Virus record (IMG/VR): IMGVR_UViG_3300020201_000061
Location: 1-35,290 of that record
Strand: one strand, 5' to 3'
DNA from: a virus
DNA length: 35,290 nucleotides
Part shown: piece by piece, positions 170 to 26,308 of the stretch
Numbering within the stretch: the first letter of the stretch is position 1
Layout of the letters: each line of letters starts with the position of its first letter
Program-made: the position numbers and the translations under genes
The notes under the pieces: model-generated
Seen by the model: the letters and a program-made list of their open reading frames with translations, nothing else
Database searches by the model: none
What the model was told of the DNA's origin: nothing

Positions 170-187
170 TTAACCCGCGGAGGTAAC
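170..187. repeat. 18-bp palindromic repeat, copy 1 (intergenic, carries SD)
   Basis: TTAACCCGCGGAGGTAAC. The left arm differs at two bases from the consensus GTTACC and the right arm is intact. The GGAGG of the right half is a Shine-Dalgarno sequence with ATG two bases after the repeat (189). Confidence 0.75.
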
Positions 188-188
188 G

Positions 189-503
189 ATGTCAGGAGTA
201 ACGGACGTGCTCAAAGGCGCAGAACCCCCCGAACCAAAGGTCGGAGACAGCCAGTACTTTATCGGCATCGGTCTTCACCCGTTGGACTTGCTAGCCGACC
301 GCTTGCGGCTACCAAAAATCACCAACGGGCCTGTGCAGCAACGCTTCGCCCCGCTGGATTTCGTGAGTGTTGTGTTCGATAACGATACGACGTTCATTAC
401 AGTCATAGCGCACGGCAAAGGTTCTGTGGTAGAAGATGGTGCGAAGAACTTTCCCACCGACGAACTGGTGGCGCAGTTCCGCATTCTCCTCGCAAGCCAA
501 TAG
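189..503 (+). CDS. Hypothetical phage protein, 104 aa
   Basis: Not recognised. The start is ATG 189, chosen because GGAGG (179-183) sits five bases upstream, inside a palindromic repeat. The protein is soluble-looking, with no signal peptide or membrane segment. Its N-terminus is Pro- and charge-rich. The centre (about residues 55-75) alternates hydrophobic and polar residues as in a beta sheet (FVSVVFDNDTTFITVIAHG), and the C-terminus looks helical. It ends 7 bases before the nuclease gene at 511 and is probably cotranscribed with it. Its position at the head of the early nuclease/helicase cluster suggests an early accessory role, but this is inference. Confidence 0.6.
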   Translation: MSGVTDVLKGAEPPEPKVGDSQYFIGIGLHPLDLLADRLRLPKITNGPVQQRFAPLDFVSVVFDNDTTFITVIAHGKGSVVEDGAKNFPTDELVAQFRILLASQ

Positions 504-510
504 GTCCCCC

Positions 511-1236
511 ATGGCGTTCGAAAGCACCACCGTTACCTTCGGAGGTAACACCGGCAAGCCAGCTAACGTGCCGATCAGCTATTCCAAGATCAAGAATTTC
601 CGGTCGTGCCCCAAGCGACACTTCCACTACGACATCGCGAAAGACATCGTTGAGGAGCGCTCCGAGCAGTTGGACTACGGCGACGCTGTCCACTTGGCCA
701 TGCAGAACCGCATCGACAAGGGCACTCCGTTGCCCGCGCAGTTCGCGGACTACGAGCCGATCGTCCAGCGGTTCCTCAAAGGAGCGGACCAGCCCGGCGC
801 GAAGGTGCTCGTGGAGCAGAAGTTCGCCATCGACCACAATTTCCAGCCTTGTAAGTTTTTCGACAACAAGGTGGTTATGTATCGAGCGATCGCCGACGCG
901 GTAAAGATCATCGGCCAAGTCGCGCTCAACAACGATTGGAAGACCGGCAAGATCAAGGACGACCCACTGCAGATCCTCACCGCGGCAGCGTGCATCTTCG
1001 CATTCCACCCGCAGGTGCAGATCATCCGTAACGAGTACGTCTGGCTGGAGGCCAACCCAATCCAGATCACGACGGTAGACCTGCGGCGCGATCAACTGCC
1101 CCAGCTATGGGCGGACATCATGCCCGAGTTCGAGATGTACCGAGAGGCGATCCGCACGGGTACGTTCCCGCCCAAAAAGAACGGCCTGTGCCGATCGTAC
1201 TGCAAGGTCGAAAGCTGTCAGTTTCACGGAGGGTAA
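511..1236 (+). CDS. PD-(D/E)XK nuclease, Cas4/RecB-like, 241 aa
   Basis: Probable DNA exonuclease of the Cas4/RecB nuclease family, acting in phage recombination or end processing. Seen: an N-terminal S-Y-S-K-I-K-N-F-x-x-C-P motif typical of these proteins; A-I-A-D-A around Asp129; then D-W-K (Asp142 to Lys144) followed by T-G-K, fitting the D...(D/E)xK core. A C-terminal cluster L-C-x3-C-x4-C together with the early Cys gives four cysteines, the arrangement used for a 4Fe-4S cluster in Cas4/AddB. The start at 511 is preferred over the in-frame 436 start because it begins after the upstream stop (503), although its SD is weak. Residues 8-13 (VTFGGN) are encoded by a palindromic repeat. It is followed after one base by the DUF4406 gene. 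Confidence 0.8.
   Translation: MAFESTTVTFGGNTGKPANVPISYSKIKNFRSCPKRHFHYDIAKDIVEERSEQLDYGDAVHLAMQNRIDKGTPLPAQFADYEPIVQRFLKGADQPGAKVLVEQKFAIDHNFQPCKFFDNKVVMYRAIADAVKIIGQVALNNDWKTGKIKDDPLQILTAAACIFAFHPQVQIIRNEYVWLEANPIQITTVDLRRDQLPQLWADIMPEFEMYREAIRTGTFPPKKNGLCRSYCKVESCQFHGG
532..549. repeat. 18-bp palindromic repeat, copy 2 (in nuclease gene)
   Basis: GTTACCTTCGGAGGTAAC, with perfect 7-bp arms around a TCGG loop. Read in frame as V-T-F-G-G-N near the nuclease N-terminus. Confidence 0.9.
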
Positions 1237-1237
1237 T

Positions 1238-1594
1238 GTGCGCCAGAAGAAAATCTACGTCGCCGGGCCTATGCGCAATATCCTCGAGTTTAACTTCCCG
1301 GCCTTCGACGCAGCCACAGCGAAGCTGATCGCTCAGGGATACATCGTGTTCAACCCGGCTGAGAACGACCGCCTTCGCGAAGGCCGCGATATCAGCAAAG
1401 AGGTCCAGTCCGGCGATTTAGCCGAGGCCGAGGCCAAAGGGTTCAGCCTGCGCGTGGCGCTTGGAGAAGATCTCGCGTGGATATGCCAGCACGCTGACAG
1501 CGTCGCGCTGCTGCCGGGCTGGCGCAACAGCAAGGGCGCAACCGCTGAGCACGCAACAGCGCTGGCGCTGGGGCTGGAAGTTATCGAGTTGTGA
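1238..1594 (+). CDS. DUF4406 nucleoside 2-deoxyribosyltransferase-like protein, 118 aa
   Basis: Rossmann-like small protein of the DUF4406 / nucleoside 2-deoxyribosyltransferase superfamily, which in phages is linked to nucleotide metabolism or base modification. Seen: the N-terminal K-I-Y-V-A-G-P-M strand-turn motif, F-D-A-A-T-x-x-L as the first helix, F-N-P-A-E, and the C-terminal A-D-S-V-A-L-L-P-G-W-x-x-S-x-G-A-x-x-E strand and helix, which carries the conserved glutamate region of the family. The start is GTG 1238, one base after the preceding stop, with GGAGGG at 1228-1233 as SD. It ends in GTGA, overlapping the next start. The exact substrate cannot be deduced. Confidence 0.8.
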   Translation: MRQKKIYVAGPMRNILEFNFPAFDAATAKLIAQGYIVFNPAENDRLREGRDISKEVQSGDLAEAEAKGFSLRVALGEDLAWICQHADSVALLPGWRNSKGATAEHATALALGLEVIEL

Positions 1595-1608
1595 CCCCCG
1601 AGGGTAAG
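1591..1608. repeat. 18-bp palindromic repeat, copy 3 (gene junction)
   Basis: GTGACCCCCGAGGGTAAG. The first triplet is the GTG start of the VRR-NUC gene and TGA (1592-1594) is the stop of DUF4406. In frame it reads (V)T-P-E-G-K. One change is present in each arm relative to GTTACC/GGTAAC. Confidence 0.65.
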
Positions 1609-1890: not shown

Positions 1891-3401
1891 CCGCTCAACT
1901 GCACGTGCCGTGGCAACAGGCGGTAGCGAACCTGTTCCCTAACGCGCCTGTTGCGGATGGCAAGATCATTCTGCCGTACGGTGTTCCAGAGACCGTTATC
2001 CTGCGACGGCTCGGGATGCAGGTCGCGGCTCCCGTCCTGAGCCAGTACCAATTCACCGGCACACGGCCGCCGTTTGGCGTACAGCGCACTACCGTCGAAA
2101 TGCTGACGATGAACACACATTGCTACGTGCTGTCAGGTATGGGCGTTGGCAAGACGGCGTGCCCGTTGTGGGCGTTCGATTACCTGCGGGGGCAACAGGT
2201 CGCCCGCAAGATGCTGGTGGTCGCGCCACTGTCGACGCTCAGCTTCACGTGGGTGGCCGAGATATTCCAGATCATGCTCGGGCGCACCGCGGTCGTGCTG
2301 CACGGCAGTCGTGCTAAGCGGATCAAGCTGCTGGCCGAGGACTACGACATCTACATCATCAACCACGACGGCATCGGGACGATCTATCCGGAGCTATGCT
2401 TGAAGTTCGGCAAGCAAGACATCTTGACGATCGACGAGCTAGCAACCTACCGCAACACCGGGCCGCGCACGAAGCTGATGAAGAAGTTCGCCGAGCGTTT
2501 TGGTTGGGTATGGGGCATGACGGGTGCACCCACGCCAAAAGAACCCACGGACGTCTGGAACCAAGCGAACATCGTCACCCCGTCGCGCGTGCCTAAGTAC
2601 TTTGGTCGGTTCCGTGAGGAACTCATGTACAAGGTCACGCAGTTCAAATGGGTGCCCAAGGAAGGCGCTGCCCAGAAGGCGTACGAAGTAATGCAGCCGA
2701 GCGTTCGCTTCACCCTAGAAGACGTGGGCGAGCTACCGCCGTATATCTCGCGACGCATCGACGTCGACCTAGGCGCAAAACAGCGACACATCTACGAGGA
2801 AATCCGCAAGTCGTGCATGGCCATCGTCGGCAACGAGACAGTGACCGCGGCCAACGCAGGCGTTCTGCTGAGCAAGCTACTCCAGATCAGCCTTGGCTAC
2901 GTCTACTCTGAGAAGAAAGGGATCATTACCCTCGACAACCAGAACCGCCTCAACACAGTGATCGACCTGCTCGGGTCCGGCTGTGGCAAGGCGTTGATCT
3001 TCACGTCGTTCAAGCACTCACTCCAAGGGGTGGCTGACGCTGTTACCTCCGCAGGTTACCGTACGGCGATCGTCTCGGGCGACACCTCCGCTGCCGAGCG
3101 CAATCGCATATTCGACGCATTCCAGAACCGCGACGAGTTAGACAACATCGTCGCGCATCCCCAGTGCATGGCGCACGGCATCACGATGACAGCAGCGGAC
3201 ACGGTGCTGTGGTTCGGGCCGCACACGTCACTGGAGATTTACGACCAAGCCAACGCGCGCATCCGCCGCACCGGCCAAAAGAAGAAGCAGCAGTTCCTCC
3301 ATCTGCAGGCGACGCCCGCGGAGAAGAAGATCTGGTCAATGCTCATCGCCCGTCAGGACGTGCAGAGCCAGTTGCTCAAGCTGTTCGAGGACGAGCTTTA
3401 G
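1887..3401 (+). CDS. SNF2-family DEAD/DEAH-type helicase, 504 aa
   Basis: Superfamily 2 DNA translocase of the phage SNF2 type, probably acting in replication, recombination or strand displacement with the two adjacent nucleases. Seen: Walker A G-M-G-V-G-K-T (about residues 84-90), motif Ia (VVAPLSTL), motif II T-I-D-E-L-A (around 181), motif III G-M-T-G-A-P, and in the C-terminal RecA lobe T-S-F-K-H-S-L, then Q-A-N-A-R-I-R-R-T-G-Q (motif VI, around 457). Start ATG 1887 overlaps the VRR-NUC stop. This is the last gene before an AT-rich spacer with a candidate promoter, so the first early operon probably ends here. Confidence 0.87.
   Translation: MTAQLHVPWQQAVANLFPNAPVADGKIILPYGVPETVILRRLGMQVAAPVLSQYQFTGTRPPFGVQRTTVEMLTMNTHCYVLSGMGVGKTACPLWAFDYLRGQQVARKMLVVAPLSTLSFTWVAEIFQIMLGRTAVVLHGSRAKRIKLLAEDYDIYIINHDGIGTIYPELCLKFGKQDILTIDELATYRNTGPRTKLMKKFAERFGWVWGMTGAPTPKEPTDVWNQANIVTPSRVPKYFGRFREELMYKVTQFKWVPKEGAAQKAYEVMQPSVRFTLEDVGELPPYISRRIDVDLGAKQRHIYEEIRKSCMAIVGNETVTAANAGVLLSKLLQISLGYVYSEKKGIITLDNQNRLNTVIDLLGSGCGKALIFTSFKHSLQGVADAVTSAGYRTAIVSGDTSAAERNRIFDAFQNRDELDNIVAHPQCMAHGITMTAADTVLWFGPHTSLEIYDQANARIRRTGQKKKQQFLHLQATPAEKKIWSMLIARQDVQSQLLKLFEDEL
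3042..3060. repeat. Palindromic repeat, copy 4 (in helicase gene)
   Basis: GTTACCTCCGCAGGTTACC. The right arm is GGTTAC instead of GGTAAC, as in the copy at 25392. Read in frame as V-T-S-A-G-Y. Confidence 0.65.
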
Positions 3402-3443
3402 TTACTAAAATATACCGTCTAAACAATACGTACTAATACTTAC

Positions 3444-3473
3444 TTGACAAGACCATTATCCTTGGTGTAGGGT
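3444..3473 (+). promoter_or_regulatory. Candidate sigma-70 promoter
   Basis: A perfect -35 hexamer TTGACA (3444-3449) lies in an AT-rich spacer, unlike the GC-rich surroundings. An 18-base gap leads to TAGGGT (3468-3473), a poor -10. The position upstream of the gene at 3502 fits a second early transcription unit. Initiation by host polymerase is inferred. Confidence 0.5.
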
Positions 3474-3501
3474 AATGGTGGGTAATGAGAGGACCCCTGA
3501 A

Positions 3502-3933
3502 ATGACCGATGTACCTGCTACCGCAGCGCCTCCCGTCGACGTGGACGTGGAGAAGCTGATCGGCAAATATGTGTTGCTCCGCGACAAGGTTAAGGCCCTG
3601 AACGACGCACACGCCGCCGCCATGAAGCCTTACAGCGACGCCATGGTCGGCGTTGAGAACGTGCTCATGTCGGTGCTGGACGCCAACAGACTGACCAATA
3701 TGAAAACTGGCGCAGGCACCGCTTCGATACTCGACAAATGGAACGCAGTGGTGGATGATCCACTGGCGTTTCGGACGTTCTGCATCGAGCAAAACCAACT
3801 GGACCTCGCCGACGTGAGAGCGAACGTGACCGCCGTCAAGGAATACAACGAGGCTAATGGTGCGTTACCTCCCGGGGTACGCCTCACTTCGTTCCGAAAG
3901 GTCGGGGTCCGCCGGGCGGGCAAGACCGAGTAG
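3502..3933 (+). CDS. Conserved early phage protein, 143 aa, helical
   Basis: Not assigned to a named family. ATG 3502 is chosen over the in-frame ATG 3475 because GAGAGG (3487-3492) lies at good spacing and 3475 overlaps the putative -10 region. After a Pro/Ala-rich N-terminus comes a strongly helical part (about residues 16-70), rich in Lys/Glu/Ala and able to form a coiled coil, then a Trp/Asp-containing segment and a basic C-terminus (R-K-V-G-V-R-R-A-G-K). The basic tail and its place before a putative DNA-binding protein and the primase suggest a nucleic-acid-related role. This is inference only. Confidence 0.65.
   Translation: MTDVPATAAPPVDVDVEKLIGKYVLLRDKVKALNDAHAAAMKPYSDAMVGVENVLMSVLDANRLTNMKTGAGTASILDKWNAVVDDPLAFRTFCIEQNQLDLADVRANVTAVKEYNEANGALPPGVRLTSFRKVGVRRAGKTE
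3864..3881. repeat. 18-bp palindromic repeat, copy 5 (in 143-aa gene)
   Basis: GTTACCTCCCGGGGTACG. The last two bases of the right arm are changed. It is read in the second frame (L-P-P-G-V), one of only four such copies. Confidence 0.6.
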
Positions 3934-3984
3934 GTCCGTCAGCCATCCACACCACCAGTAGTTAGTCGTGCAACAGGAGAAAGT

Positions 3985-5217
3985 ATGTCCACGGAAATGA
4001 TGATCCTCGCAGGCCTCGGTCTGCCCTCCACGAAACTCGCCGCCTCGCAAGTCTCGCCCAGCGATCTCGGCGCTGGTATCGGTGCGGCGTTCGCCGTCGT
4101 CAGCTACAAGGGCAAGGTCTGGTCGATCAAGCACCGCGGCGACAGCAAGCCTCTCATGCGCAGCGACGGCTCGGGTCCGCAGGGGACGATCGAGTGCGTC
4201 ATCGTCAAGGCGTCGCCGGTCATCAGCAAGATCTTCTACGTCAACGGCTTCAAGGAAGGCGACAACGCTGCCCCAGACTGCTGGTCCGTGAACGGTGTCA
4301 GTCCCGACCCGGCGTCCAGCGCCAAGCAGTCCAACACCTGCGCGGGCTGCCCCAAGAACGCGTGGCGCTCACGCATCACCGACAACGGCAAAGCGGGCAA
4401 AGCGTGCAGCGACAGCAAGCGTCTCGCGCTCGTCCCGTCCGGTGATATGCGGAACGACCTCTACGGTGGTCCGATGCTGTTGCGTATCCCCGCAGGGTCA
4501 CTGCAGGGTCTCAGCCAGTACAGCGCCGCCCTGCAGGCCATGGGCCATGCGTATTACGGCGTCGTGACCGAGATTGGCTTCGACTACAAGGAAGCCTACC
4601 CGCTCTTGACGTTCAAGGCCAAGCGCGTCCTCACCGAGGCCGAGGTCGACGTCCTTCTCGAACTCCAGAGCAGCGCAACCACCAACCGCATCCTCAACGA
4701 GGCGGTCGATCAGGTGAAGGCCGAGGTTGCCTCTCCGGGTAACGTCGGGGCAGTGGCAGGCGTAACCCCCGCCATGGTCGTCGCTGCTCCGGTGGTCGTG
4801 GCTCCTCCGGTGGTCGTGGCTCCTCCGGTGGTCGTGGCCCCCAACCCGTTTGGCGGCAGTGGTGCCAGCGCGCCGCTGGTCGATCCGCCCGCGCCTGTCG
4901 TCGCACCTGTTGTGGCGGCTCCCGTCGTGGTGCCCCCTGCGGTCGTCGCTCAGGCCCAACCGGCTACTGCCCCAGTCGAAATGACGCTGGAGCAAAAGCT
5001 GGCTGCTGCGGAGGCCAAGCTGGCAGCCATGTCAGCCGCCGCTGCGGCACCGGGCGCGAAGGCTCCGCGCAAGGCGCGCACGCCGTCTCCGTCCCCGGCC
5101 CCGACGATCATCGAGAACACCGCGGTGCAAGTCGCCACCGCCCCGATGCAGACGACCGTTAACCCGCAAGCCCTCACGGACCTTGAAGCGCAACTGGACG
5201 CCCTGACGAACGTCTAG
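3985..5217 (+). CDS. Cys-containing early protein with Pro/Val linker and acidic tail; possible ssDNA-binding protein, 410 aa
   Basis: No confident family. Start ATG 3985 has AGGAG a few bases upstream. Residues 1-240 look globular and include C-W-S-V..., N-T-C-A-G-C-P-K-N and K-A-C-S-D-S-K, a set of cysteines that could bind zinc. Residues about 260-325 are a low-complexity Pro/Val/Ala linker with 18-bp tandem repeats. Then come an Ala-rich helix, a basic stretch (A-P-R-K-A-R-T-P-S-P) and a short C-terminus ending L-T-D-L-E-A-Q-L-D-A-L-T-N-V. A globular domain, a disordered linker and an acidic/hydrophobic tip just upstream of the primase-helicase resemble the layout of phage ssDNA-binding proteins. 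That role is inferred from layout, not from a domain match. Confidence 0.7.
   Translation: MSTEMMILAGLGLPSTKLAASQVSPSDLGAGIGAAFAVVSYKGKVWSIKHRGDSKPLMRSDGSGPQGTIECVIVKASPVISKIFYVNGFKEGDNAAPDCWSVNGVSPDPASSAKQSNTCAGCPKNAWRSRITDNGKAGKACSDSKRLALVPSGDMRNDLYGGPMLLRIPAGSLQGLSQYSAALQAMGHAYYGVVTEIGFDYKEAYPLLTFKAKRVLTEAEVDVLLELQSSATTNRILNEAVDQVKAEVASPGNVGAVAGVTPAMVVAAPVVVAPPVVVAPPVVVAPNPFGGSGASAPLVDPPAPVVAPVVAAPVVVPPAVVAQAQPATAPVEMTLEQKLAAAEAKLAAMSAAAAAPGAKAPRKARTPSPSPAPTIIENTAVQVATAPMQTTVNPQALTDLEAQLDALTNV
4726..4743. repeat. 18-bp palindromic repeat, copy 6
   Basis: GTTGCCTCTCCGGGTAAC. There is one change in the left arm. Read in frame as V-A-S-P-G-N at the border between the globular part and the linker. 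Confidence 0.75.
4783..4836 (+). repeat. Tandem 18-bp coding repeat (three units)
   Basis: Three head-to-tail units of GCTCCTCCGGTGGTCGTG (the first with one change) encode A-P-P-V-V-V. Looser copies continue to about 4950. Such repeats probably expand or contract by slippage and make a flexible linker. Confidence 0.85.
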
Positions 5218-5218
5218 T

Positions 5219-5265: not shown

Positions 5266-5282
5266 GTGCCGGGGCGCGCAAC

Positions 5283-8200
5283 ATGGCAGGACCTGAGAGT
5301 GTACCGAATGCGGCAGAGTTCCTAGCAAGGGCTCTGCCGTGGCCTGTTGAGGGGGGACCTAAGTTCTTCGTCAACGTCCACTATCGGACGCCGAAAGTTA
5401 TCAACGGCGTGCCGATCATGCTCAAGGATGGTCGGCAGGATCAGTCGTACCCGGGGCGCGCATGTCTCAACGTGCGCGAAGCCGCCGGGGTAACGGCATG
5501 GGCTAACACGTTCGAGAACGGCGTTGGCACCGACATCTACGTGTGCATGTCCGGCCAGTCGATGGCCAAAGAGAAGGTGAACAGTCGTGGCCGAACCTAT
5601 TACAACGCCATCCGAAAGGCCGAGAACGCAGTCCTACACAAGTCGTTCTATGTCGACGTCGACGTCAAGCCCGGCGATCCGTCGAAGGGATACGCAACAA
5701 CTGCTGAGGCTGCCCAAGAGTTTGGACGTATTCGACGTGCCATCGGCCTCCCTGTACCCTCCATGGTTGTCGCCAGCGGAAGCGGCGGATTTCATGCGCA
5801 CTGGCTGCTCATGGAAGCTATTCCGACAGCTACTTGGGAGCCTCTCGCTCACCAACTCGTCGCGGCACTTCTGGCTAATGGTTTCAAAGGCGACACTGGA
5901 TGCACCATTGACGCCGCGCGACTACTCCGAGTACCTAACACTTTCAACCATAAGCAAGGCGGTCGCCGACCTGTCCAGATCGGTAACAACTCTGGTCAAG
6001 ACTATTTCCTCGACGCGATAGTCAAACCGCTAGAGCCCTTCAAGGGCGCAGCCAAGATCACTACGCGCTCCACGAATACCATAGGTTTCCTTGGCAGCCC
6101 CTCGCCGAGGCTGGCCCTGTCGCAAGTCACACCTGATAGCCTCTCAGCCGGTGTCGCGCCTGCGGCGGGGCCTGTGCCCATCTCCGACCTCGCCGTCGTG
6201 TGCCCCTTTGTGGCGCACAGCTTGGCGACTGGCGGCGCTGACAACACCAATCCGCTGTGGCTCGCTACCACCAACATCGCGACGTTCACCGCCGAGGGGC
6301 GCGACGCTGCGCACTGGATGGCGCAGGGACACCCCGGCTACACGCAAGACAGCACCGACGAATTATGGCATCGCCAGCTTGGCACCAAGCTGAACCGCAA
6401 CCTTGGTTGGCCCAAGTGCCAGTCGATCGCCGCGCAGGGCGCGCCCCAATGCAAGACGTGCCCGCACGCGGGGGGCGGCAAGAGCCCGTTCAATTTCATC
6501 GTCCACACACCGTTACCCCCGCAGGTAACGGAGAACGAGGCCGCGGTAATCGCCGCTAGCGACGAGCCGCCCGCGCCGCTGCCCCAGACATACTCGCGCA
6601 ACGCCTACCAGCAAATCCTCTACACGGTGACCGATGAAGAAGGCGTGCAGTCGAAGCAACTGCTCACTGTCTTCCCGTTCGAAAAGCCATGGCTGCGATA
6701 CGAGCCGCCCGCACTGATGTTCACGACCGTCACGGGCGGCGTCATCGGCACGAAGTCAGCGCGCAAGGAACAAATCTGCGTGCCGTTTGAGTTGTTGTAC
6801 GACGCCACGACGTTCCCGCGTGAGCTTGCCAAGCTGCGGATGGATCTCAAGACACACGAAATCACGGGAGTGATCGGCTTCATGCGTAGCTGGATCGAGG
6901 TCCTCAAGCAGGACACGGAGAACTTCGTCCACGCCGCGCCCTACGGCTGGTTCCGCAACGAGAACAACAACAAGATCAGTGGCTTCTCGTACGGCGGGCA
7001 GGTCTGGTCCAAGGCCGACTACTCGCGACCCTCGGCCAACCCAGACATGGTCCTCGACCGTCAGTACAAGCCGACCGGGGACATCGAGCCGTGGCTGCTG
7101 GCATCGAAAATGCTCACCGATCAGAAACGTCCAGAAATCGACGTCATCCTCGCTACTGCGTTCGCGTCGCCTCTCGTTACCCTTGTAGGTCAGACCGGCC
7201 TGCTCCTGTCGACGTACTCGGCGGAGAGCGGCATCGGCAAGACGACGGCGCTGCGTATCGCGCAGGGTGTCTGGGGTCATCCCATCAAAGCTGTGCAGTC
7301 CCTCACCGACACGATCAACTCGGTCGTCAAGAAGATGGGCGACCTCAAGAACCTCCCTATGTACTGGGACGAGTTGAAGACGGAGGCTGACACGCAACGG
7401 TTCGTGCAGTTGGCGTTCCAGCTTTCAGGCGGCAAGGAGAAGTCACGGCTTAGCTCGGCGATCAAATACCATGAGCCCGGCACTTGGGAACTGCTGCTCT
7501 GCTCGACGTCGAACGACAGCCTGCTCAACCACATTACCGCAGCGACCAAGACTACCAGCGCGGGCATGGCTCGCATCTTCGAGTTCGTCGTACCCCCGGG
7601 GGTAACCGGCCAGATCTCGCCGGGCATGGCGCAGCAGATCCTCGATGGCGTGACGTACAACTACGGGCATGCTGGCTTGGCATACGCCAAGTTTCTCGGC
7701 GAGCACTATGCCAAGGTCGAGGCCGAGGTGAAGGACAAGCTCTACGAGATCGAGAAAGCTCACAAGGCGACCGCTGAGGAACGCTATTGGTTGGCCATGG
7801 TGACTGTGCTCATGATGGGTGCCAAGTACGGCAACCAGTTGAAGCTCACCAACATCGACGAGAAGGCGCTCTACACGTTCTTGATTGGCGTCTACACAGC
7901 GATGCGTCAGGAGCGCAAGGACAGCCCGGTCGACTTGGCGAACCCGACGTCGATGCTGGGCCACATCGCGCGCTACCTTAACGTGAAGCGCCCGCACAAC
8001 ACAATCGTGACCAACCTTATCCACAGCGGCAGCGGGCGTCCGCCGCAGCCCGGCATGCCGGGGGCGATCGTCCAGCGCATGGACCCTAACCACCGCGTTG
8101 ACGAAGTGCAGGTTCAATTCGCTATCGACACGAGCACAGTACGCATGTTCAAGGCTCCGTTCATGGATTGGCTGGCCGAGCAGAAGTTGAGTCAACGGCT

Positions 8201-8345
8201 CGTGCTGCAGAAGCTCAAGAACACGTTCAACATCAAAGAAGTCCGCGGGCGTCTCGGCGCAGGCACGGCGCGCGGCACAATGCAGGAGGTCTGTCTTGAG
8301 TTCTGGTACGGCGACCCCGTCTTCAATGGGTACATCGAAATCTAA
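5283..8345 (+). CDS. Primase-helicase (AEP/PrimPol-like plus P-loop ATPase), 1020 aa
   Basis: Likely replicative primase-helicase. The N-terminal part carries AEP primase features: F-Y-V-D-V-D with Asp125/Asp127, S-G-S-G-G-F-H-A-H (His171/His173), and D-x3-L-L-R-V-P-N-T-F-N-H-K. The middle has C-x9-C-x2-C followed by H (C-Q-S-I...C-K-T-C-P-H), a possible zinc site. The C-terminal half is a P-loop NTPase of the DUF927/D5-like kind: Walker A E-S-G-I-G-K-T-T around residue 650, Walker B-like L-P-M-Y-W-D-E-L-K, and a sensor stretch L-L-L-C-S-T-S-N-D-S. The start ATG 5283 has only a weak G-rich SD. Two palindromic repeats lie within it, both in the linker-like second reading frame. Assignment to a specific primase subfamily needs profile comparison. 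Confidence 0.8.
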   Translation: MAGPESVPNAAEFLARALPWPVEGGPKFFVNVHYRTPKVINGVPIMLKDGRQDQSYPGRACLNVREAAGVTAWANTFENGVGTDIYVCMSGQSMAKEKVNSRGRTYYNAIRKAENAVLHKSFYVDVDVKPGDPSKGYATTAEAAQEFGRIRRAIGLPVPSMVVASGSGGFHAHWLLMEAIPTATWEPLAHQLVAALLANGFKGDTGCTIDAARLLRVPNTFNHKQGGRRPVQIGNNSGQDYFLDAIVKPLEPFKGAAKITTRSTNTIGFLGSPSPRLALSQVTPDSLSAGVAPAAGPVPISDLAVVCPFVAHSLATGGADNTNPLWLATTNIATFTAEGRDAAHWMAQGHPGYTQDSTDELWHRQLGTKLNRNLGWPKCQSIAAQGAPQCKTCPHAGGGKSPFNFIVHTPLPPQVTENEAAVIAASDEPPAPLPQTYSRNAYQQILYTVTDEEGVQSKQLLTVFPFEKPWLRYEPPALMFTTVTGGVIGTKSARKEQICVPFELLYDATTFPRELAKLRMDLKTHEITGVIGFMRSWIEVLKQDTENFVHAAPYGWFRNENNNKISGFSYGGQVWSKADYSRPSANPDMVLDRQYKPTGDIEPWLLASKMLTDQKRPEIDVILATAFASPLVTLVGQTGLLLSTYSAESGIGKTTALRIAQGVWGHPIKAVQSLTDTINSVVKKMGDLKNLPMYWDELKTEADTQRFVQLAFQLSGGKEKSRLSSAIKYHEPGTWELLLCSTSNDSLLNHITAATKTTSAGMARIFEFVVPPGVTGQISPGMAQQILDGVTYNYGHAGLAYAKFLGEHYAKVEAEVKDKLYEIEKAHKATAEERYWLAMVTVLMMGAKYGNQLKLTNIDEKALYTFLIGVYTAMRQERKDSPVDLANPTSMLGHIARYLNVKRPHNTIVTNLIHSGSGRPPQPGMPGAIVQRMDPNHRVDEVQVQFAIDTSTVRMFKAPFMDWLAEQKLSQRLVLQKLKNTFNIKEVRGRLGAGTARGTMQEVCLEFWYGDPVFNGYIEI
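6512..6529. repeat. 18-bp palindromic repeat, copy 7 (in primase-helicase)
   Basis: GTTACCCCCGCAGGTAAC, with perfect 6-bp arms. Read as L-P-P-Q-V in a linker after the Cys cluster. Confidence 0.9.
7589..7606. repeat. 18-bp palindromic repeat, copy 8 (in primase-helicase)
   Basis: CGTACCCCCGGGGGTAAC. The left arm is CGTACC. Read as V-P-P-G-V-T. Confidence 0.7.
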
Positions 8346-8547
8346 GAAATGCTGTTGGTGCGGTAAACTTATATACGGGCCGGTGCTTGTTCACGGGTTG
8401 ACGATCCACCAATACTGCGCGATCCAACTCAGGTACCACGCTTCGATCCAAAAATCCGATGGCGGCGCTGAAATTGCGCCATTGCTCACCCACATCGACC
8501 GTCCCAAGATCGAGTGGAAAGATACCTCTGGAGGTAACGATGGCTGA
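8296..8547 (+). CDS. Small CxxC zinc-ribbon-like protein, 83 aa
   Basis: Unknown small protein with K-K-C-C-W-C-G-K-L (a C-x2-C zinc knuckle) and a later H-Q-Y-C that could complete a metal site. The start is probably TTG 8296: AGGAGGT (8284-8290) lies 5 bases upstream, inside the end of the primase gene. An alternative ATG at 8329 lacks an SD. The last residues T-S-G-G-N-D-G are encoded by a palindromic repeat, which also supplies the SD of the next gene. It overlaps the primase by 50 bases and the HNH gene by 8. Function is not known. Confidence 0.6.
   Translation: MSSGTATPSSMGTSKSKKCCWCGKLIYGPVLVHGLTIHQYCAIQLRYHASIQKSDGGAEIAPLLTHIDRPKIEWKDTSGGNDG
8521..8538. repeat. 18-bp palindromic repeat, copy 9 (SD of HNH gene)
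   Basis: GATACCTCTGGAGGTAAC, with one change in the left arm. GGAGG is the SD of the HNH gene, whose ATG begins at 8540. It is also read in frame as D-T-S-G-G-N in the upstream gene. Confidence 0.8.
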
Positions 8548-10054: not shown

Positions 10055-10065
10055 GACCGCCTCCT

Positions 10066-11566: not shown

Positions 11567-11584
11567 GTTACCTCAACGGGTAAT
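11567..11584. repeat. 18-bp palindromic repeat, copy 12 (stop plus SD module)
   Basis: GTTACCTCAACGGGTAAT. On the minus strand it contains the TGA stop of the 2248-aa gene (11573-11575) and the GAGG SD of the HNH gene. Confidence 0.8.
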
Positions 11585-14500: not shown

Positions 14501-17500
14501 CTTCTCGCTGATGATCTTGTCCTTCATCGTGGACATCTTGCCCATGAACTCTGCCAGCTTGCGGGCAGGGCGGCTCTCCCCGAATAAGTGATCTGAGTTG
14601 TTGGTCATCTGCACGACGCTGGCGACCTTGTCGAGCACCCGCTGAGTGCGCAGCTTCCAGTCGATCTTCGCCGGGATGCGCTGTTCGAAGTATTCACGCG
14701 CGGGCGAAGGCCGGATCGGCGAAGCCGACTTGGCCGCTGCCGCGTCGTAAGCCATAGCACCAAAGCGAATATCTCCGTCGATAATGAGAGCATCGTCTGC
14801 GAGCCGCATCGCGCGATCTAGTGCGATGACCTCGCCTATGGACTTGATGCCGAACAATTTCTTAACAGCGTCGACGACTTTATCCCACATCGTGCGCAGC
14901 GTACCTGTGGGGGTAACGATGGGCTTGTGCAGCGGGATCGCCGCCAGCATGTCGCGGAACTGCGGGTTAGCATGCACCTCAGCCATAAACTCTGATGCGT
15001 TGTGGAACCCGTACTGCTTCTTCAACCGTGTCTGGCGCGCTCCACCCTCTGGGAGGGCAGCCAACGTGTCGCGCATAAGCTGTTCGACTTGCGCTCGAAA
15101 AAAGGGATCGTGCTTTAGTGCTCGTTCAGTGACCGCGTGAGCGCCTTCGTGGTAAACCACGCGCGGCGACGACATCATCCGTTCTGGAATAAAAATCAAG
15201 CCGGGCTTCGCAGTGTAGCGGTTATTCTGATAGAAACCGCCAGCATTGTTCAGCCCATAGGCGTCCCATATAGCGTCGCTGACGATGTACACGCGAGTGT
15301 CCGAACCCAGGCCAACAAGCTTGTCATGGATCGTTTTGAACAACGTCTGTTCGTGGTTGCTCAACTGCGCCCACACAGCGTCCAAGTGTTCCGTCAAAGT
15401 CGTCCAGCGCGACGGGGTCCACTTTTTAAGAACATCCCTAACCAGAAGTCTGCTTTTCTCCTGGAAGTCGTCGCTCATCAAATCTGCACCGTCACGATCG
15501 CTCTTGGAGTTAGCGCGACTGTCGCCGTAGTCGTCCGGGTTTAGATCATCAGAACTCAGGCCAGCGTCATCCTCCCGACCGACGACGTTGTCTTTCTCTG
15601 CCAATTTTTCGAGGTCGTCGCGCCTGTCGACCTTTTTCTTTTTGACACCAGCCCGTGCCTCGGCTTCTTCGAGCTTCAACTGGGCTTCGGTCTTTTCGTT
15701 CACAGGCGCAGCGGGGTCTTTCTTGCCCGCATGTTTCGTGGAATTGGCTGTCTCCTGCGCCGCATCTTTTGCCTGTTGCGCTACCAGCGCAGCGCGTTCC
15801 GCAGCCTCGGCATCAAGCTCGGCCTTACCCTTGGGGGTAACGGGCTCGGCCTTACCCTTGGGGGTAACGGGCTCTTTAACGAGCGCGTCACGCCCGCCAC
15901 GCATTTCGTGGTCGAGTGGCAGGAACTCGGTGAACGCCTCGTTCAACTTGCGCGTCTTGGCAGTCGGGTCAGTCTCGTTGAGTGCCGACTTGACGCGCTC
16001 GTTGAACTTGTCAGCAGCGTTGAGGTAAGCGCGCCAAGGCGTGCTGTTAGCCTCCTCGGGCTTGTCGGTGCGGTGCCCCATGCGGGCGATCTCAATATGC
16101 TTCTGAGCGGCCAGCACAAGCATATTGTGGACGCGCTGCAGGATGCTCTTGCGCGCGTCGCCGTCGCCACCCAGCGCCTTGCGCGCCTCGTCTGCGAGTT
16201 CTTTGTCCCGCGGCTTGTTGTTCTCGTCGGTCCACATGTCGCGGGCGAGTTCTTCGGCGGCGGTCTCGTTAGTGTCTTTCTTGACGTTGCGAGCAGTCCG
16301 CTTGTTGTCAGCATCGTTGTCGCGGTGCTGTTCGATCGCGATCTTGACGTGACGCGCCAGCTTAGCCTCGGGCGTCTCAGGCGGTAGCTCCGTGCGTTTG
16401 AACACTCTTGGCTTGCCCGTCGCCTCAGCTTCCGCGGCGGCCTTCGCCTCAGCCTCAGCTTGCAGCTTGGCTAGCTCAGCAAACTTCTCGGTCTCGGTAG
16501 CCATGTTCTTTTTGACTATCGCCGCCACCTTGCGCGCAACGATGTCGCTCGCATTCTCGCCGCCGGGGAGTCCAGCCTTGACGGCGTTGCGGATCTTGAT
16601 GTCTTCCGCGGTCAGTTGGATCTTCCGGCTCACGACCTTGACGCCAACTTTGGGCGCTTCACCCGCTTCGGCGGCGGCTTCCTCTTTAGCGGCGCTCTCG
16701 GCGATCTTGAGCTTGATCGTCGAAGTTTTCTTTACTGGCGGCGCGTCGGTATTACCCGGTGGGGTAACGAGTGGGTCAGCCGCAACGGCGCTGGCTTCCT
16801 CGCCCGGCACCGCGCGCATGGTTTCGTCGGCTACAGGCGGCTTGATTACTTCGTCCACCCCAGCCGCAACGGCGCTGGCTTCCTCGCCCGGCACGTTGCG
16901 CTTGGTCTCTACGAGCGTGGGCGGCTTGGCAGCCTCGGTCGCTTCCACAACCGTGATCGGGGTCTTCTCCAAAACGGGGGTCTTGGGAGCAGGCGGCGGG
17001 GGCTTGCGCTCGGTCCTGTAGCCGCCAGCGTTCTTGGTGATCTCGCCAGCCGCTTTCATGCCCGCGAGAATGTTGACGATTTCAGTCGGCGTCGGAGTGG
17101 CGTCGGCCCCGAGCACTTTGACAAGCGCGTCGTGGATCTCAGTCGCCTTCATGCGCTTGGTGGCGACACTATGAATAGCGGCAACCACCGCTTCGTTCGC
17201 CGGGCCTTTGGGTGCATTCGGGTCAGCAATCGCGCCAACGCCCGGGCCAGCAGGGGGATCAGCAGTCGCACCGGGCGGCTTGAGCGCATCGGGTGCCCCT
17301 GCAGCCGCCGCGTCGATCTGCGCGTCAAGCGCTGTCGGCCCGTCTGGAGCCAGTGCTTTGGTCTGCGCCGGATCGGGCGCGTTGCCCTCAACGTCCTTAG
17401 TCGCGTCGCGAGCCTTCTTCGCATCAAGCTGCTTGGAAGCCCAGTCGCCAGCCTTGTCACGGCCCTTGCCCAACGCACCGCCAGCGGTAGCCATGCCTCC

Positions 17501-18319: not shown

Positions 18320-18328
18320 GACGCTACT

Positions 18329-21300
18329 CTAGGGCATATTCGGCGGGCTGTCGACCTTGCCAGTAAAGTTGCGCTTAAACCGCTCGATGATGCCGGGGCC
18401 ACCGCTATTACCTGCGGAGGCAACACGGCCGCGAAGCCCCAATTCTGCACGGAACGGCAGCGTCATCGCGCGGCCGATGGCAGCAATCGTTCTGTTCTTG
18501 GTGAGTTCCAAACCCTGCTTGGCCGGGTAATACAACGCGCGGCCAGCGTCAGCGATAATCCCGCTGCCCTGCGGCGCTTTACTGTTGAACTCGTTGTTAG
18601 TGACGTAGTCAGGGAGCTTCTTGGCGACGTCCCAAGCAGTGTTCCCAATGTCACCCCACGACTTTTCTTTCGGTTTGTCGCGCTCCTTGAGCAGATGCTC
18701 CCGGTACCGTTCGGTGATCCGGTTGATCTTCTCGTACGCGCCGGGGCGAATGTGGACCTCGACGGTGTCGTCGCCCCTCAGGCGCACAACGACGTTGCCC
18801 GCGCGGTCGTAGCCACGCGGCATGAACTGACGTTCTTTTTCTTCGTCGCCGGGGATAGTCAGCGACGCCACCACGCGAGCCGCCATGGCCGGGGTCATGT
18901 TGCGATTGCTGGTGAACAAATTGGTCGCGAGTTCCTTAAGTTCCTCGGGCTTGGCGACTTCCCCGGGTGCGTTCCAGATAGACGGCATCGGTGTGCCGTC
19001 CTTGGCTTTGCTGTCGCGAATGGTCTCAGCGTGAACCGTGATCTCCGCGGGCAGTTCCTGTAGTTCACGCGTCGTCAGCGAGCGATCATAGACGCGCTTC
19101 GCTTCGGCGATGTTGGCGGCGTGTTCCTTGTTGTGGGCGTCCCGATATTCCTTCTCGTACGCCTTCTTGTTGGTCTCCCACGCCTTTACCTTGCTGCTGT
19201 ACTCGCGCTCCATGTTCTGAACGCGGGCAAGCTCCTGCGGACCGACCTTGTTCTTAGTATTGGCCGCGACCCACTGACGGAAGCCCTCGTCCTGCAGGAC
19301 CTTCGAGTAGGGATTGTTCCCCTCGAACTTCGTGCCAGTAAGCTTCGCGCCGGGATGTTCCACGTCGTACTTCGGCGGCTTGAACGCCGGAGTGGGCGCG
19401 TATTTGCCATCGTGGACAATGTCTTGCGGCACCGTCACTTGGTCGAAAACGCTGTAGTAATTCCCGTCTTTGCCCTTGAAGATCTGGTAACCGGCTTTAT
19501 TTTCGCCCTCGATAGTCTTGTAAAACGTCTCGTGGTTGCGGCCCTTTAAAATGCGCCCAGTCTTCGGATCGCGCGACGGCCAGTGGCCCTCGGCATCCGC
19601 TTTGAGGCCAGCCGCCTTGGCAGCCTCCATGTCGTAGTCCTTGCCGTCCGGGTCGAACTTTGCGGGCTTACCCTCGGGGGTAACCGGCTTGTTGATCCGC
19701 AGCACGCTCGCAGGCGGCGTCGGGAGAGGTTCGCCGCCCTGTCCGACCGGATTAACACCGTCCATGGCCTGAACGTCAGGGTCTCCGCTGCCGTCGCCAC
19801 TACCGTCGCCACTACCGTCGCCACTACCGTCGCCACTACCGTCGATAGTCGCCTCTGCCTTCTCCGTGGGCGAGGCGGGCTGGCGTCCCTCCCCGCCCGA
19901 GCTAGGGTTTGGAGTGGTGACCCCGGTCGCTCGCTGGAGATCTTCGAGAATGCCCGCGACGGGCGAAGGCGTAGCAGCGGGAGGAGCAGCCTTGCCCCCG
20001 CCGCCAACAGCCTTCTTCCGGATGGCATCCGTGCGCGCCTTGAGGTTCTCGATACGCGCCTTGTCGAGTTCAGTCGGCTCTTTGTTCTTACCGACAGAGT
20101 TGGCACGGTTGCTCAGGATTTCCCAGAACATGCTCTTGTTGCTGAGGCCGAGCGCGGTGTGCAGTAAGTTCTGCGGTGTGATCTTGTACTGGTCGACAGG
20201 CTTGCCGTCGTCCCCGCGGATGATAGCCGTTCGGCCGTCCGGCGAGATCACCATGTGGTTGCCGTCAGGGACCTGCGAATAGGCCCGAGCAACGAGCTTC
20301 TTCGCCCCCTCGACGTCTCCAGCGGCGATTGCCTGCTCGGCCTGAGCGCCGAATTCAGCGGCCTTGGAAGCCGAATACTGGACGATCTCGAAAGCGGCCT
20401 TTTTCGCCTTGTCCGTCTGCCCAGTGCTGACGAAGTGTTCGTACACGATGTTCAGGCGACGGAGCGCGACGATGCTGTCACGGACGTTCGGGTCCGAGGC
20501 GAGCAGCTTCTTGTCGGGCGCAGTCTCAGCGGCGATCCGGTTGATCTCCTGCATGTCCGCCTCGGGAGCAGCACCGTCGCCCCGATTGAACGCCTTGCGG
20601 CCACCAGCCGAGTGCGGGTCAGGCGTGCCGATAGCGTCGACGCGATCGCCCTTAAGATGGAACGTCTCGTTGGCGTAGTCCATCGCGCCGTTGATGGCGA
20701 GACGGATCATGTTGTCCGGATCGTCTTTATCCAGCACCGGGTCATACGCTTCGGTGCGGGTCTGGTCGCGCAGCGCCTTGCGCTTACCTTTCGAACCGCT
20801 TGCCGCGTTACCTGCGGGGGCAACCGGACGTCCTGCTCCGCCGCCTGCACGATCAGGGACAGCGCCACGGTTAGGCGGCTCGGCCCCTTCGAACTTCGGC
20901 ACGCCTTCGAACGGCACGGCACTGCGGTCGCGAATATCGTCAGCGGTGAAGTCGGCGGACATGGTGTCCGGAGCGCCACTAGGCGCGTCGGGTGCGACCG
21001 GCGGCGCGTCGGGCGCAACAGTTTGAACTTCTGGACCGTAGCTGGTCTCTATAGGTTGAGCAGCAGGGGTCCCGATTTCAGGCGGTTCACTGCGTGGCTG
21101 GGCGCTCGGGGTGGATGCGTGCTGGGTCATCCAGCGTCGCTGCATGTCGCGGATCACACCACCACCCTGCGCACCCTGCACTTCTTCATAGCCCGTACCG
21201 TCGTCGCTGACACCTGCGTCGGCGGGATCGTAGGCGGGATCGTAGGCGGGCTCAGCGGGCATCGTGCCAGCGTTGGGATAAACAGACCCCTGCCGCAGAG

Positions 21301-22947: not shown

Positions 22948-23408
22948 GGTGTCGCTCCCGAAACGAAGGCTGGCTTAAATTGAAGCCAGCGACAGTCAGC
23001 ACGATACATCGAAAAAATTATCAAGTCACCCCCTACTACGGCCCCCGGGAGTCGGGTTTCTTCCTTAAACCCGATTTTCTTGTCGAACTGGATGGCCTTC
23101 TCGTTGGTGCTCTCGACCGGCCCGTAGATCACATCGACCCCGAGTTGATTGAAGCAATAGTCAAAAATGACCCACAAAAACCCTCGGGTAAGCCAATCAG
23201 GGGCGAACGCAGCCACATGCATCTGCACGGACTTATGCAGATAACCGTCGATCATGACGCCCCCCAGCAGCTTACCTCCGCGGGTAACAGCGATGCACCG
23301 ATCGAACCCCTCCCGAAACGGCTGGTCCGGGTTAAGAGCCCGGCAGATCAACTCGCCATCCCACGGATCGTTGAAGCGGATTTGCTTTAGAAGTTCAACT
23401 TCTGCCAT
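22944..23408 (-). CDS. GNAT-like acetyltransferase in the virion operon, 154 aa
   Basis: Acetyltransferase-like fold of the type found in podoviral structural operons. Seen: R-C-I-A-V-T-R-G-G-K-L-L-G-G-V-M-I as the first strands, V-Q-M-H-V-A-A-F as the central strand, then G-V-D-V-I-Y-G-P-V and S-T-N-E-K-A-I-Q-F-D-K-K-I-G-F, the typical C-terminal N-x-K-A-x-x-F-x-x-K-x-G-F signature. The classical R-x-x-G-x-G/A loop is not obvious, so activity is uncertain. It overlaps the 88-aa gene by 22 bases and the S74 gene by 4. The segment V-T-R-G-G-K is encoded by a palindromic repeat. Confidence 0.75.
   Translation of the reverse strand: MAEVELLKQIRFNDPWDGELICRALNPDQPFREGFDRCIAVTRGGKLLGGVMIDGYLHKSVQMHVAAFAPDWLTRGFLWVIFDYCFNQLGVDVIYGPVESTNEKAIQFDKKIGFKEETRLPGAVVGGDLIIFSMYRADCRWLQFKPAFVSGATP
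23271..23288. repeat. 18-bp palindromic repeat, copy 22
   Basis: CTTACCTCCGCGGGTAAC. Read on the minus strand as V-T-R-G-G-K at a beta-turn of the GNAT-like protein. Confidence 0.85.
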
Positions 23409-25386: not shown

Positions 25387-25391
25387 CGAGA

Positions 25392-25410
25392 GTTACCCCC
25401 GCAGGTTACC
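25392..25410. repeat. Palindromic repeat, copy 23 (stop plus SD module)
   Basis: GTTACCCCCGCAGGTTACC. On the minus strand TAA (25406-25408) ends the 174-aa gene, and the following GGGGG stands 9 bases before the ATG of the tail gene (25386). Confidence 0.75.
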
Positions 25411-25930
25411 GTCCGGCGACATTGTAGGACAGATCACCCGCCTGCGCAGCACTTCCTTCGCCTTGCCGTTTGGCGTTCTCGCGGGCAGTGATCTCGCGGT
25501 TGCGGACGCTTTCCGCAGTGCGCCGGGCGACGGCTTGGCGACCGGCTTCCTGCTCGACCAACGTGCGCGCCGACATCGAGAGGGAAATACCTGCTTCATT
25601 AGTCAGGGGGGCGATCGGGTCGATCTCCGCCGCGGGGGCAAGTACAGGAGCATGCTCAGGCAAAGCGACACTGGTGGTGACGGCATTGCCCTGCGCTTCC
25701 AGCGCCATATCCTCGAAGCCGAGCGGCTTGTCGCTCATCAGGAGGCGCGAAATACTTTCGGCCGTCACTTCCGGCGAAAGCGAGATACGTTCAACTGAGT
25801 TAGCAGCCGGAACAGGTGTCGCCACCTCAGAGACAAGATCCATCGGATCGGCCACAGCAGAAACAGCAGAAACAGGAGTAGCAGGAACTGCAGGGCGAGA
25901 CGCAGGAGTACGAGCGGGGGCACGAGACAT
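25406..25930 (-). CDS. Ala/Pro/Val-rich virion-module protein, 174 aa
   Basis: No recognised family. The first 50 residues are an Ala/Pro/Val/Ser-rich disordered segment (S-R-A-P-A-R-T-P-A-S-R-P-A-V). The centre has short helices with L-L-M-S-D-K-P-L-G-F-E-D-M-A-L. The C-terminal third is a charged helix with R-R-T-A-E-S-V-R-N-R-E-I-T-A-R-E-N-A-K-R, a likely coiled coil. ATG 25930 has GGAGA upstream. Its stop codon lies within a palindromic repeat. Its place between a small structural gene and the tail gene suggests a minor virion or assembly protein. Confidence 0.65.
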   Translation of the reverse strand: MSRAPARTPASRPAVPATPVSAVSAVADPMDLVSEVATPVPAANSVERISLSPEVTAESISRLLMSDKPLGFEDMALEAQGNAVTTSVALPEHAPVLAPAAEIDPIAPLTNEAGISLSMSARTLVEQEAGRQAVARRTAESVRNREITARENAKRQGEGSAAQAGDLSYNVAGR

Positions 25931-25974
25931 GTATTCTCCGGGGGTTGTTAGTGTTTCGAACAGACACGAACGGC

Positions 25975-26289
25975 TTACGGGGTGAAGTTACCCGAAGCAA
26001 CGGCGCTGACGTTGGCTCCCATCACCAACTGCCATTTGCCGACACGTGAGGTAATCCCGTGCGCGCCAAAGTCGATAACGATTGGCTGGAGTTCAGCCGA
26101 CACGGTGCCTCCCGTGTAGACCGTGATGGCTCCGCCGGAGCCGTCCTTGATCTGAACAGCGCCGGGGGCAGTGGTGGCGGGCACAAGGACGATGTTCCGA
26201 AGAACATCGCCCATTGCGCCAGTCCCAAGATCGCGCGTACCGCCAGCGGCGGCGGTCGCGTATCGGTCACCTTTGAGGCGAGCGTCCAT
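25975..26289 (-). CDS. Small beta-rich virion protein, 104 aa
   Basis: Unassigned structural-type protein. After a basic N-terminus come short beta segments: I-V-L-V-P-A-T-T-A-P-G-A-V-Q-I-K-D-G, A-I-T-V-Y-T-G-G, P-I-V-I-D-F-G-A-H-G-I and W-Q-L-V-M-G-A-N-V-S-A-V-A-S-G-N-F. This layout resembles small head-decoration or virion beta-sandwich proteins of phages. The ATG at 26289 follows GGAGG lying in a palindromic repeat. It probably forms a pair with the 174-aa beta protein upstream. Confidence 0.65.
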   Translation of the reverse strand: MDARLKGDRYATAAAGGTRDLGTGAMGDVLRNIVLVPATTAPGAVQIKDGSGGAITVYTGGTVSAELQPIVIDFGAHGITSRVGKWQLVMGANVSAVASGNFTP

Positions 26290-26290
26290 A

Positions 26291-26308
26291 GTTACCTCCG
26301 CGGGTAAT
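26291..26308. repeat. 18-bp palindromic repeat, copy 24 (SD of 104-aa gene)
   Basis: GTTACCTCCGCGGGTAAT. On the minus strand GGAGG is the SD and the ATG starts one base after the repeat. Confidence 0.88.

What the first reader, a model, noticed from the sequence alone, without database searches (positions are those of the whole stretch)
170..26308. Repeat arms act as ready-made translation-initiation modules
At 170 (gene 189), 8521 (HNH 8540), 11567 (HNH 11565), 25392 (tail protein 25386) and 26291 (gene 26289) the right half (GGAGGTAAC or a variant) gives the SD, with the ATG 1-9 bases after the repeat. Two of these (11567, 25392) also contain the stop codon of the preceding gene, and in the copy at 1591 the first triplet is itself a GTG start and holds the previous TGA. 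In the folded RNA the SD lies in the 3' arm of the hairpin, so translation could be gated by a protein or by ribosomes from upstream. Start-associated sequences of cluster K mycobacteriophages are a loose analogue.
Basis: partly seen in the sequence, partly recalled or inferred. Interest (0 to 1): 0.85.

Follow-up and report, generated by a model that had tools for sequence, protein, structure and literature searches.

The report
Phage-wide palindromes reused as ribosome sites
This phage and its uncultured relatives carry about 15-70 copies of a short DNA palindrome spread along each genome, in a different version in each lineage; here one half happens to double as the ribosome-binding site of a few genes, but the palindromes look like DNA sites read by a phage protein, possibly its own replication primase-helicase, rather than RNA switches.

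Summary
The five gene-start copies, the two internal stop codons and the GTG/TGA copy are exactly as described. They are 5 of 27 copies of an 18-bp dyad, GTTACC-N6-GGTAAC; most copies lie inside genes. In lineages with GGTAAC-type arms the right arm really is the SD of many genes. But relatives carry the same kind of genome-wide dyad with other sequences that hold no SD (TTGACA, TTAACA, TCACGCCC, TTACGCCC arms). There it sits just 5' of a separate SD, or the ATG lies inside it. Stems are weaker at gene starts than elsewhere, and in two lineages the symmetry runs to a 1-nt centre that no hairpin can form. So the dyad is most likely a double-stranded DNA site for a phage protein, and SD use is a by-product. 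Across 43 related contigs the motif tracks the phage primase-helicase (window 5283-8345) better than five neighbouring genes (partial r 0.49, p<0.002). Its C-terminal half folds like the SCCmec Cch and SaPIbov1 Rep replication-initiator helicases. Closest published relatives: Corndog (cluster O) dyads and cluster A stoperators. Binding, and any role in replication or silencing, are untested.

The parts
170..187 (+). dyad copy; right arm GGAGGTAAC is SD of gene 189-503
532..549 (.). dyad copy, perfect arms, inside PD-(D/E)XK nuclease gene 511-1236
1591..1608 (+). dyad copy; its GTG is the start of 1591-1890 and its TGA the stop of 1238-1594
2179..2196 (.). dyad copy (2 mismatches) inside SNF2 helicase gene 1887-3401
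3042..3059 (.). dyad copy inside SNF2 helicase gene
3864..3881 (.). dyad copy inside gene 3502-3933
4726..4743 (.). dyad copy inside gene 3985-5217; identical in G001
6512..6529 (.). dyad copy, perfect arms, inside primase-helicase gene
7176..7193 (.). dyad copy inside primase-helicase gene
7589..7606 (.). dyad copy inside primase-helicase gene; identical in G001
8521..8538 (+). dyad copy; right arm is SD of HNH gene starting 8540
9593..9610 (.). dyad copy near 3' end of gene 9249-9632
10951..10968 (.). dyad copy inside metallophosphoesterase-like gene 10066-11298
11567..11584 (-). dyad copy; SD of HNH gene (start 11565) and stop codon of gene 11573-18319
13259..13276 (.). dyad copy inside 2248-aa gene
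14900..14917 (.). dyad copy inside 2248-aa gene
15824..15841 (.). dyad copy inside 2248-aa gene, first of a 27-bp in-frame tandem duplication
15851..15868 (.). dyad copy inside 2248-aa gene, second of the tandem duplication
16751..16768 (.). dyad copy inside 2248-aa gene
18407..18424 (.). dyad copy (2 mismatches) inside 1083-aa gene
19667..19684 (.). dyad copy inside 1083-aa gene
20807..20824 (.). dyad copy inside 1083-aa gene
23271..23288 (.). dyad copy inside gene 22944-23408
25392..25409 (-). dyad copy; SD of tail gene 23653-25386 and stop codon of gene 25406-25930
26291..26308 (-). dyad copy; SD of gene 25975-26289
32139..32156 (.). dyad copy, perfect arms, in the intergenic gap 32110-32193
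34049..34066 (.). dyad copy, perfect arms, inside gene 33230-34303
5283..8345 (+). 1020-aa primase-helicase: N-terminal half primase-like, C-terminal half DUF927 / Cch-SaPIbov1 Rep-type AAA+ initiator helicase; best-supported candidate reader of the dyads
   Evidence: Pfam DUF927 7e-15; profile hits 5dgk 3e-17 and 8tch 8e-17; AlphaFold C-terminal half, Cch Z 28.1, SaPIbov1 Rep Z 24.2; co-variation with motif

Best explanation
The repeats are double-stranded DNA recognition sites with dyad symmetry, kept at about 15-70 copies along the whole genome and read by a sequence-specific phage protein whose target changes from lineage to lineage. The best-supported reader is the phage's own primase-helicase (window 5283-8345), a primase-like N-terminus fused to an initiator helicase of the SCCmec Cch / SaPIbov1 Rep type; the sites would be scattered loading or initiation sites for it (inferred). 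Sites are preferred where coding constraint is loose: gene junctions, linkers, and upstream of genes. Where the arm happens to read GGAGGTAAC, natural selection has used it as a ready SD with the ATG 1-5 nt downstream. Shown here: sites, symmetry, arm conservation, lineage-specific motifs, junction enrichment, SD reuse, co-variation with the primase-helicase, and its fold.
For: Genome-wide dyads in 16 of 19 related IMG/VR or GenBank genomes or large fragments tested and in 52 of 72 further contigs of at least 9 kb, with changing half-sites (TTACC, TTACT, TTACA, TTACG, TAACT, GTAAC, TTAAC, TTGAC, TCACG). Symmetry reaches a 1-nt centre in G009/G010. Core arms are conserved between window and G001 while the spacer varies (3/150 against 14/90 differences, p 1e-4). 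Sites are spaced more evenly than a class-matched null (Stouffer Z -4.1) and occur inside the 6.7-kb and 3.2-kb genes that have no internal junction. Motif distance follows primase-helicase distance: r 0.78, partial 0.70, p<0.0005 in 12 genomes; r 0.64, partial 0.49, p<0.002 in 43 contigs, while the five neighbouring genes give partials of -0.30 to 0.21. One 50-residue stretch just before the Walker A motif carries extra signal (family-wise p 0.011). The C-terminal 610 residues fold as Cch and SaPIbov1 Rep, and SaPI Rep helicases bind repeated sites called iterons (PMC7581432).
Against: The co-variation is correlational; partial Mantel tests can be too liberal, and the two genome sets overlap. 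Genomes G018 and G019 have the primase-helicase but no dyads, and 19 of the 20 contigs without a significant dyad also carry it (several are short). There is no iteron-like cluster near the primase gene. The localized stretch is not the C-terminal domain that binds iterons in SaPI Rep. Nine contigs use both 5- and 6-bp (or 4- and 5-bp) spacings, unusual for a rigid dimer. The primase assignment of the N-terminal half rests on weak hits.
Confidence: 0.45

Rival explanations
1. Stoperator-like silencing sites: a phage transcription regulator binds the dyads at gene junctions and inside genes and blocks initiation or elongation. A fast-evolving ~250-280-aa protein of unknown fold (e.g. L149:10001-10807, RHph EVB41_028) could be that regulator.
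For: Copy number, spread and placement in short co-directional gaps (9.6 per kb in gaps of 20-40 bp against 0.31 per kb inside genes, convergent gaps lowest) resemble cluster A stoperators. The protein was found in every dyad-bearing genome searched except G015 (a 41.8-kb fragment), and not in G018, G019 or the fragment G004. A dyad lies 20-80 bp upstream of its start in most genomes.
Against: No integrase, ParA or recognised HTH regulator among the non-structural proteins of G001 and G006. The protein's divergence does not track the motif (partial r about 0) and its model has no DNA-binding fold match. Sites are symmetric, unlike oriented stoperators. In G017 a second, clustered dyad family (TTTTCCCANTGGGAAAA) sits at this gene and looks more like a regulatory operator.
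Confidence: 0.27
2. Other whole-genome DNA roles: sites for a host or phage architectural, partition, packaging or DNA-modifying protein.
For: Even spacing and presence in both early and late regions and inside long genes would fit.
Against: The motif changes within one phage group and follows a phage gene, which argues against a host reader. No ParA or ParB family was found in G001/G006.
Confidence: 0.18
3. One reading: RNA hairpins whose 3' arm holds the SD and gates translation through a protein or upstream ribosomes.
For: SD in the right arm with the ATG 1-5 nt away in many genes of the GGTAAC-type lineages; stop codons of upstream genes inside some copies.
Against: Stems are weaker at starts than elsewhere; most copies are not at starts; SD-free motifs occupy the same places; symmetry extends to positions that no hairpin can pair.
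Confidence: 0.06
4. Mobile palindromic (REP- or MITE-like) elements that spread by insertion.
For: Many dispersed copies; one 27-bp tandem duplication (15817-15870).
Against: In 15 aligned copies between the window and G001 the sites are homologous and change by substitution, not by 18-bp insertion; copies share only the arms, and each lineage has its own arms.
Confidence: 0.03

Closest known systems
17-bp dyad repeats of cluster O mycobacteriophages (Corndog, Catdawg; TGTTCGG-N3-CCGAACA, 34 copies in Corndog)
   Same: Symmetric dyad, more than 30 copies spread over the genome, mostly intergenic or near starts with about a third inside genes, no integrase, function unknown (PMC4351075). Catdawg also encodes a Prim-Pol (PF09250) fused to a DUF3987 domain.
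   Different: Unrelated phages and motif. One invariant motif in Corndog, many lineage-specific motifs here. Corndog sites are not closely linked to starts; here many are, and some act as SD.
Cluster A mycobacteriophage stoperators (L5, Bxb1)
   Same: 20-30 or more sites throughout the genome, in short intergenic spaces; site motif varies with the phage-encoded reader (PMC6550527, PMC9283540).
   Different: Stoperators are 13-14 bp, asymmetric and oriented with transcription, bound by a monomeric repressor of a temperate phage; here sites are symmetric and no repressor or integrase was recognised.
Start-associated sequences (SAS) of cluster K mycobacteriophages
   Same: Repeated sequence that includes the SD a few bases before start codons (PMC3203893).
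   Different: SAS is a 13-bp non-palindromic sequence found almost only at starts of non-structural genes; the present dyads are palindromic, on both strands, and mostly not at starts.
SaPIbov1 Rep / SCCmec Cch initiator helicases and their iterons
   Same: The C-terminal half of the window's 1020-aa protein has this fold (Z 24-28); SaPI Rep recognises repeated element-specific sites (PMC7581432).
   Different: SaPI iterons are clustered in one origin just downstream of rep; the dyads here are scattered over the whole genome.
NrS-1 phage primase-polymerase with its 8-nt recognition sequence
   Same: A phage primase-polymerase fused to a helicase that starts at a specific sequence (PMC7102993).
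   Different: Only two copies of an 8-nt sequence in NrS-1; here 15-70 symmetric sites.

Membership tests
Cluster O (Corndog) type genome-wide dyads | 15-18-bp dyad in >20 copies across the genome, partly intergenic, partly coding | tested here: met
Cluster O (Corndog) type genome-wide dyads | TGTTCGG-N3-CCGAACA motif and Corndogvirus relatedness | tested here: not met
   the window motif is GTTACC-N6-GGTAAC; the motif query hits 31 Mycobacterium and 2 Gordonia phages only
Cluster A stoperators | asymmetric 13-14-bp site oriented with transcription | tested here: not met
   sites are dyads
Cluster A stoperators | 20-30 sites, many in short intergenic gaps | tested here: met
Cluster A stoperators | temperate phage with HTH repressor and integrase or parABS | tested here: not met
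   none among the non-structural proteins scanned in G001 and G006; the window is a fragment
Cluster A stoperators | repressor binding stops transcription | not testable with these tools
   needs experiment
Cluster K SAS | asymmetric repeat almost exclusively at start codons | tested here: not met
   5 of 27 copies at starts in the window, symmetric sites
RNA hairpin gating translation | stem kept at the gene-start copies | tested here: not met
   start copies have weaker stems and broken pairs
SaPI Rep / Cch initiator helicases (protein 5283-8345) | DUF927 AAA+ helicase fold with C-terminal domain | tested here: met
SaPI Rep / Cch initiator helicases (protein 5283-8345) | iterons clustered downstream of the gene | tested here: not met
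   no cluster within 4 kb of the primase gene
SaPI Rep / Cch initiator helicases (protein 5283-8345) | sequence-specific binding of the cognate repeat | not testable with these tools
   only co-variation available

The most novel reading that the evidence does not exclude
A phage primase-helicase related to SaPI Rep reads a lineage-specific palindrome tiled every 1-3 kb over the genome, giving a distributed rather than single-origin set of initiation or loading sites, with sites selected to double as ribosome-binding sites, stop codons or start codons where they fall on gene junctions.
Probability: 0.33. Interest if true: 0.85.

Novelty: new variant of a known kind. Interest (0 to 1): 0.62.

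Why it matters
Genome-wide dyads have been known in Corndog-type phages since 2015 with no assigned reader or function. This phage group supplies dozens of natural variants of motif and protein, which points to one testable reader, the primase-helicase. If it holds, it would show replication-type recognition sites distributed over a whole phage genome. It also shows how a DNA-level constraint can be absorbed by, and reused in, ribosome-binding sites.

Tried and rejected
RNA hairpin gating: rejected on stem strength and symmetry. Mobile elements: rejected on the alignment with G001. The ~270-aa protein as reader: attractive by phyletic pattern but no fold match and no co-variation beyond background; kept only as a rival. 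An origin cluster next to the primase gene: not found. Enriched words in the dyad-free genomes G018/G019: none of comparable strength; G004 has a weak TTAC-N6-GTAA signal (6 against 0.2 expected). Other phages with similar primases (Niklas, Ab19, MalagasyRose): no TTACC-type dyads. Most of the other genes with a matching phyletic pattern that were inspected looked like shadow frames of longer genes. My gene caller rewards SD motifs, so start enrichment in GGTAAC lineages was rechecked with GenBank starts of RHph_TM3_14A.
Full report
Observation. Every copy named in the finding is present as described. The window holds 13 exact TTACC-N6-GGTAA dyads where 0.05 are expected, none in a reversed control, and 27 copies by a position matrix. 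Spacing is 6 in all strong copies. Five copies are at gene starts (1.0 expected, p 0.005); 19 are inside genes away from starts and stops, in different reading frames, so the constraint is on the nucleic acid rather than the protein. This last point follows from the sequence.

The phage. The window is a 35-kb fragment related to a 62.5-kb IMG/VR genome (G001; major capsid protein 96% identical) and, more distantly, to Rhizobium phage RHph_TM3_14A. No integrase, ParA or recognised HTH repressor was found among the non-structural proteins scanned in G001 and G006.

Relatives. Most relatives have their own genome-wide dyad, but with a different sequence: TTACC-N6, TTACC-N5, TTACCCA-N-TGGGTAA, TCACGCCC-N-GGGCGTGA, TTACGCCC-N-GGGCGTAA, TTAACAG-N-CTGTTAA, TTGACAT-N-ATGTCAA, GTTACAG-N3-CTGTAAC and others. 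Of 72 further contigs of at least 9 kb, 52 have a significant dyad. Two distant genomes (G018, G019) have none, and G004 has a weak one.

Placement. Dyads are concentrated at gene junctions: 9.6 per kb in co-directional gaps of 20-40 bp, 0.31 per kb inside genes, low in convergent gaps. In GGTAAC-type lineages the dyad centre peaks 0-24 bp before the start codon, so that the right arm is the SD; in SD-free lineages it peaks 12-48 bp before it, just 5' of a separate SD; in G007 and G013 the start codon often lies inside the dyad. With GenBank starts in RHph_TM3_14A, 12 of 42 copies lie 6-24 bp 5' of a start against 1.1 by chance. Spacing along the genome is more even than a null that keeps the junction and interior classes (Stouffer Z -4.1, G007 being an outlier).

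DNA or RNA. Start copies have weaker predicted stems than other copies in nearly all lineages. In G009 and G010 the bases flanking a single central base are complementary in 21 of 21 and 25 of 27 sites; a hairpin cannot form such a pair. Core arms are conserved between the window and G001 while the spacer diverges (3/150 against 14/90, p 1e-4). These results favour a double-stranded DNA site. The SD role is real but secondary and limited to lineages whose arm reads like an SD.

Who reads it. I compared motif distance with protein distance. In 12 genomes the 1020-aa protein (window 5283-8345) gave r 0.78 and partial r 0.70 against other early genes (p<0.0005); no other protein came close. In 43 contigs, partly overlapping with the first set, it gave r 0.64 and partial 0.49 (p<0.002); its five neighbours gave -0.30 to 0.21. 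A 50-residue stretch just before the Walker A motif carried additional signal (family-wise p 0.011). The C-terminal half matches DUF927 and the solved structures of SCCmec Cch and SaPIbov1 Rep by profile (E 3e-17 and 8e-17) and by predicted fold (Z 28.1 over 487 residues, Z 24.2 over 463). SaPI Rep helicases bind repeated element-specific sites (PMC7581432). The N-terminal half is primase-like, on weaker evidence. I therefore rank this protein as the most likely reader. This is inference from co-variation and family, not a binding result.

Evidence that tempers this. G018 and G019 have the protein but no dyads; 19 of 20 contigs without a significant dyad also have it, though several are short. 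No cluster of sites marks an origin near the gene. Some genomes use two spacings. A second unknown protein of 250-280 aa has a suggestive distribution and an upstream dyad, but neither a fold match nor co-variation.

Known systems. The nearest published phenomenon is the 17-bp dyad of Corndog-type phages: more than 30 copies, partly coding, non-temperate, no known function (PMC4351075). Catdawg of that cluster also carries a Prim-Pol fused to a DUF3987 domain, an interesting parallel with n = 1. Stoperators (PMC9283540, PMC6550527) share copy number and placement but are asymmetric and oriented. Cluster K SAS (PMC3203893) are asymmetric and restricted to starts.

Verdict. Observation confirmed; the interpretation as translation modules holds only for the SD reuse. 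The feature is a new variant of genome-wide phage dyads, with a testable candidate reader.

Noticed in passing
G017 (L135-L137) and G023 (L147): A second dyad family, TTTTCCCA-N-TGGGAAAA, 9-12 copies, clustered and mostly intergenic, including one about 28 bp upstream of the ~290-aa unknown protein; it looks more like a classical operator set.
   Followed up: partly
L085:42239-45322 (RHph EVB41_076): Annotated in GenBank as 'putative integrase' but it is the primase/DUF927 helicase; the annotated attL/attR may be equally unsupported.
   Followed up: partly
window 15817-15870: 27-bp in-frame tandem duplication in the 2248-aa gene that duplicates a dyad.
   Followed up: no
window 10066-11298 (minus): 410-aa metallophosphoesterase-like protein with an N-terminal HTH-like segment (Pfam hits below their gathering cut-offs).
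   Followed up: no
G001 (L088-L091): One small early protein matches the Acb2/Tad1 hairpin domain (PF24729, E 9.6e-6), possibly an anti-CBASS or anti-Thoeris sponge.
   Followed up: no
L106/L107 (G007): Six genes have their ATG or GTG inside the dyad centre (TTACCCAATGGGTAA), some with an aggagg SD just upstream.
   Followed up: partly
L155-L159: Distant relatives of the capsid protein (44-51%) on large Halomonas, Salinicola, Chromohalobacter and Pleionea contigs, perhaps prophages of related phages.
   Followed up: no
L085/L086 (RHph_TM3_14A): The 9-mer TGAGTGCGC occurs 9 times against 0.3 expected; unexplained, separate from the dyad.
   Followed up: no
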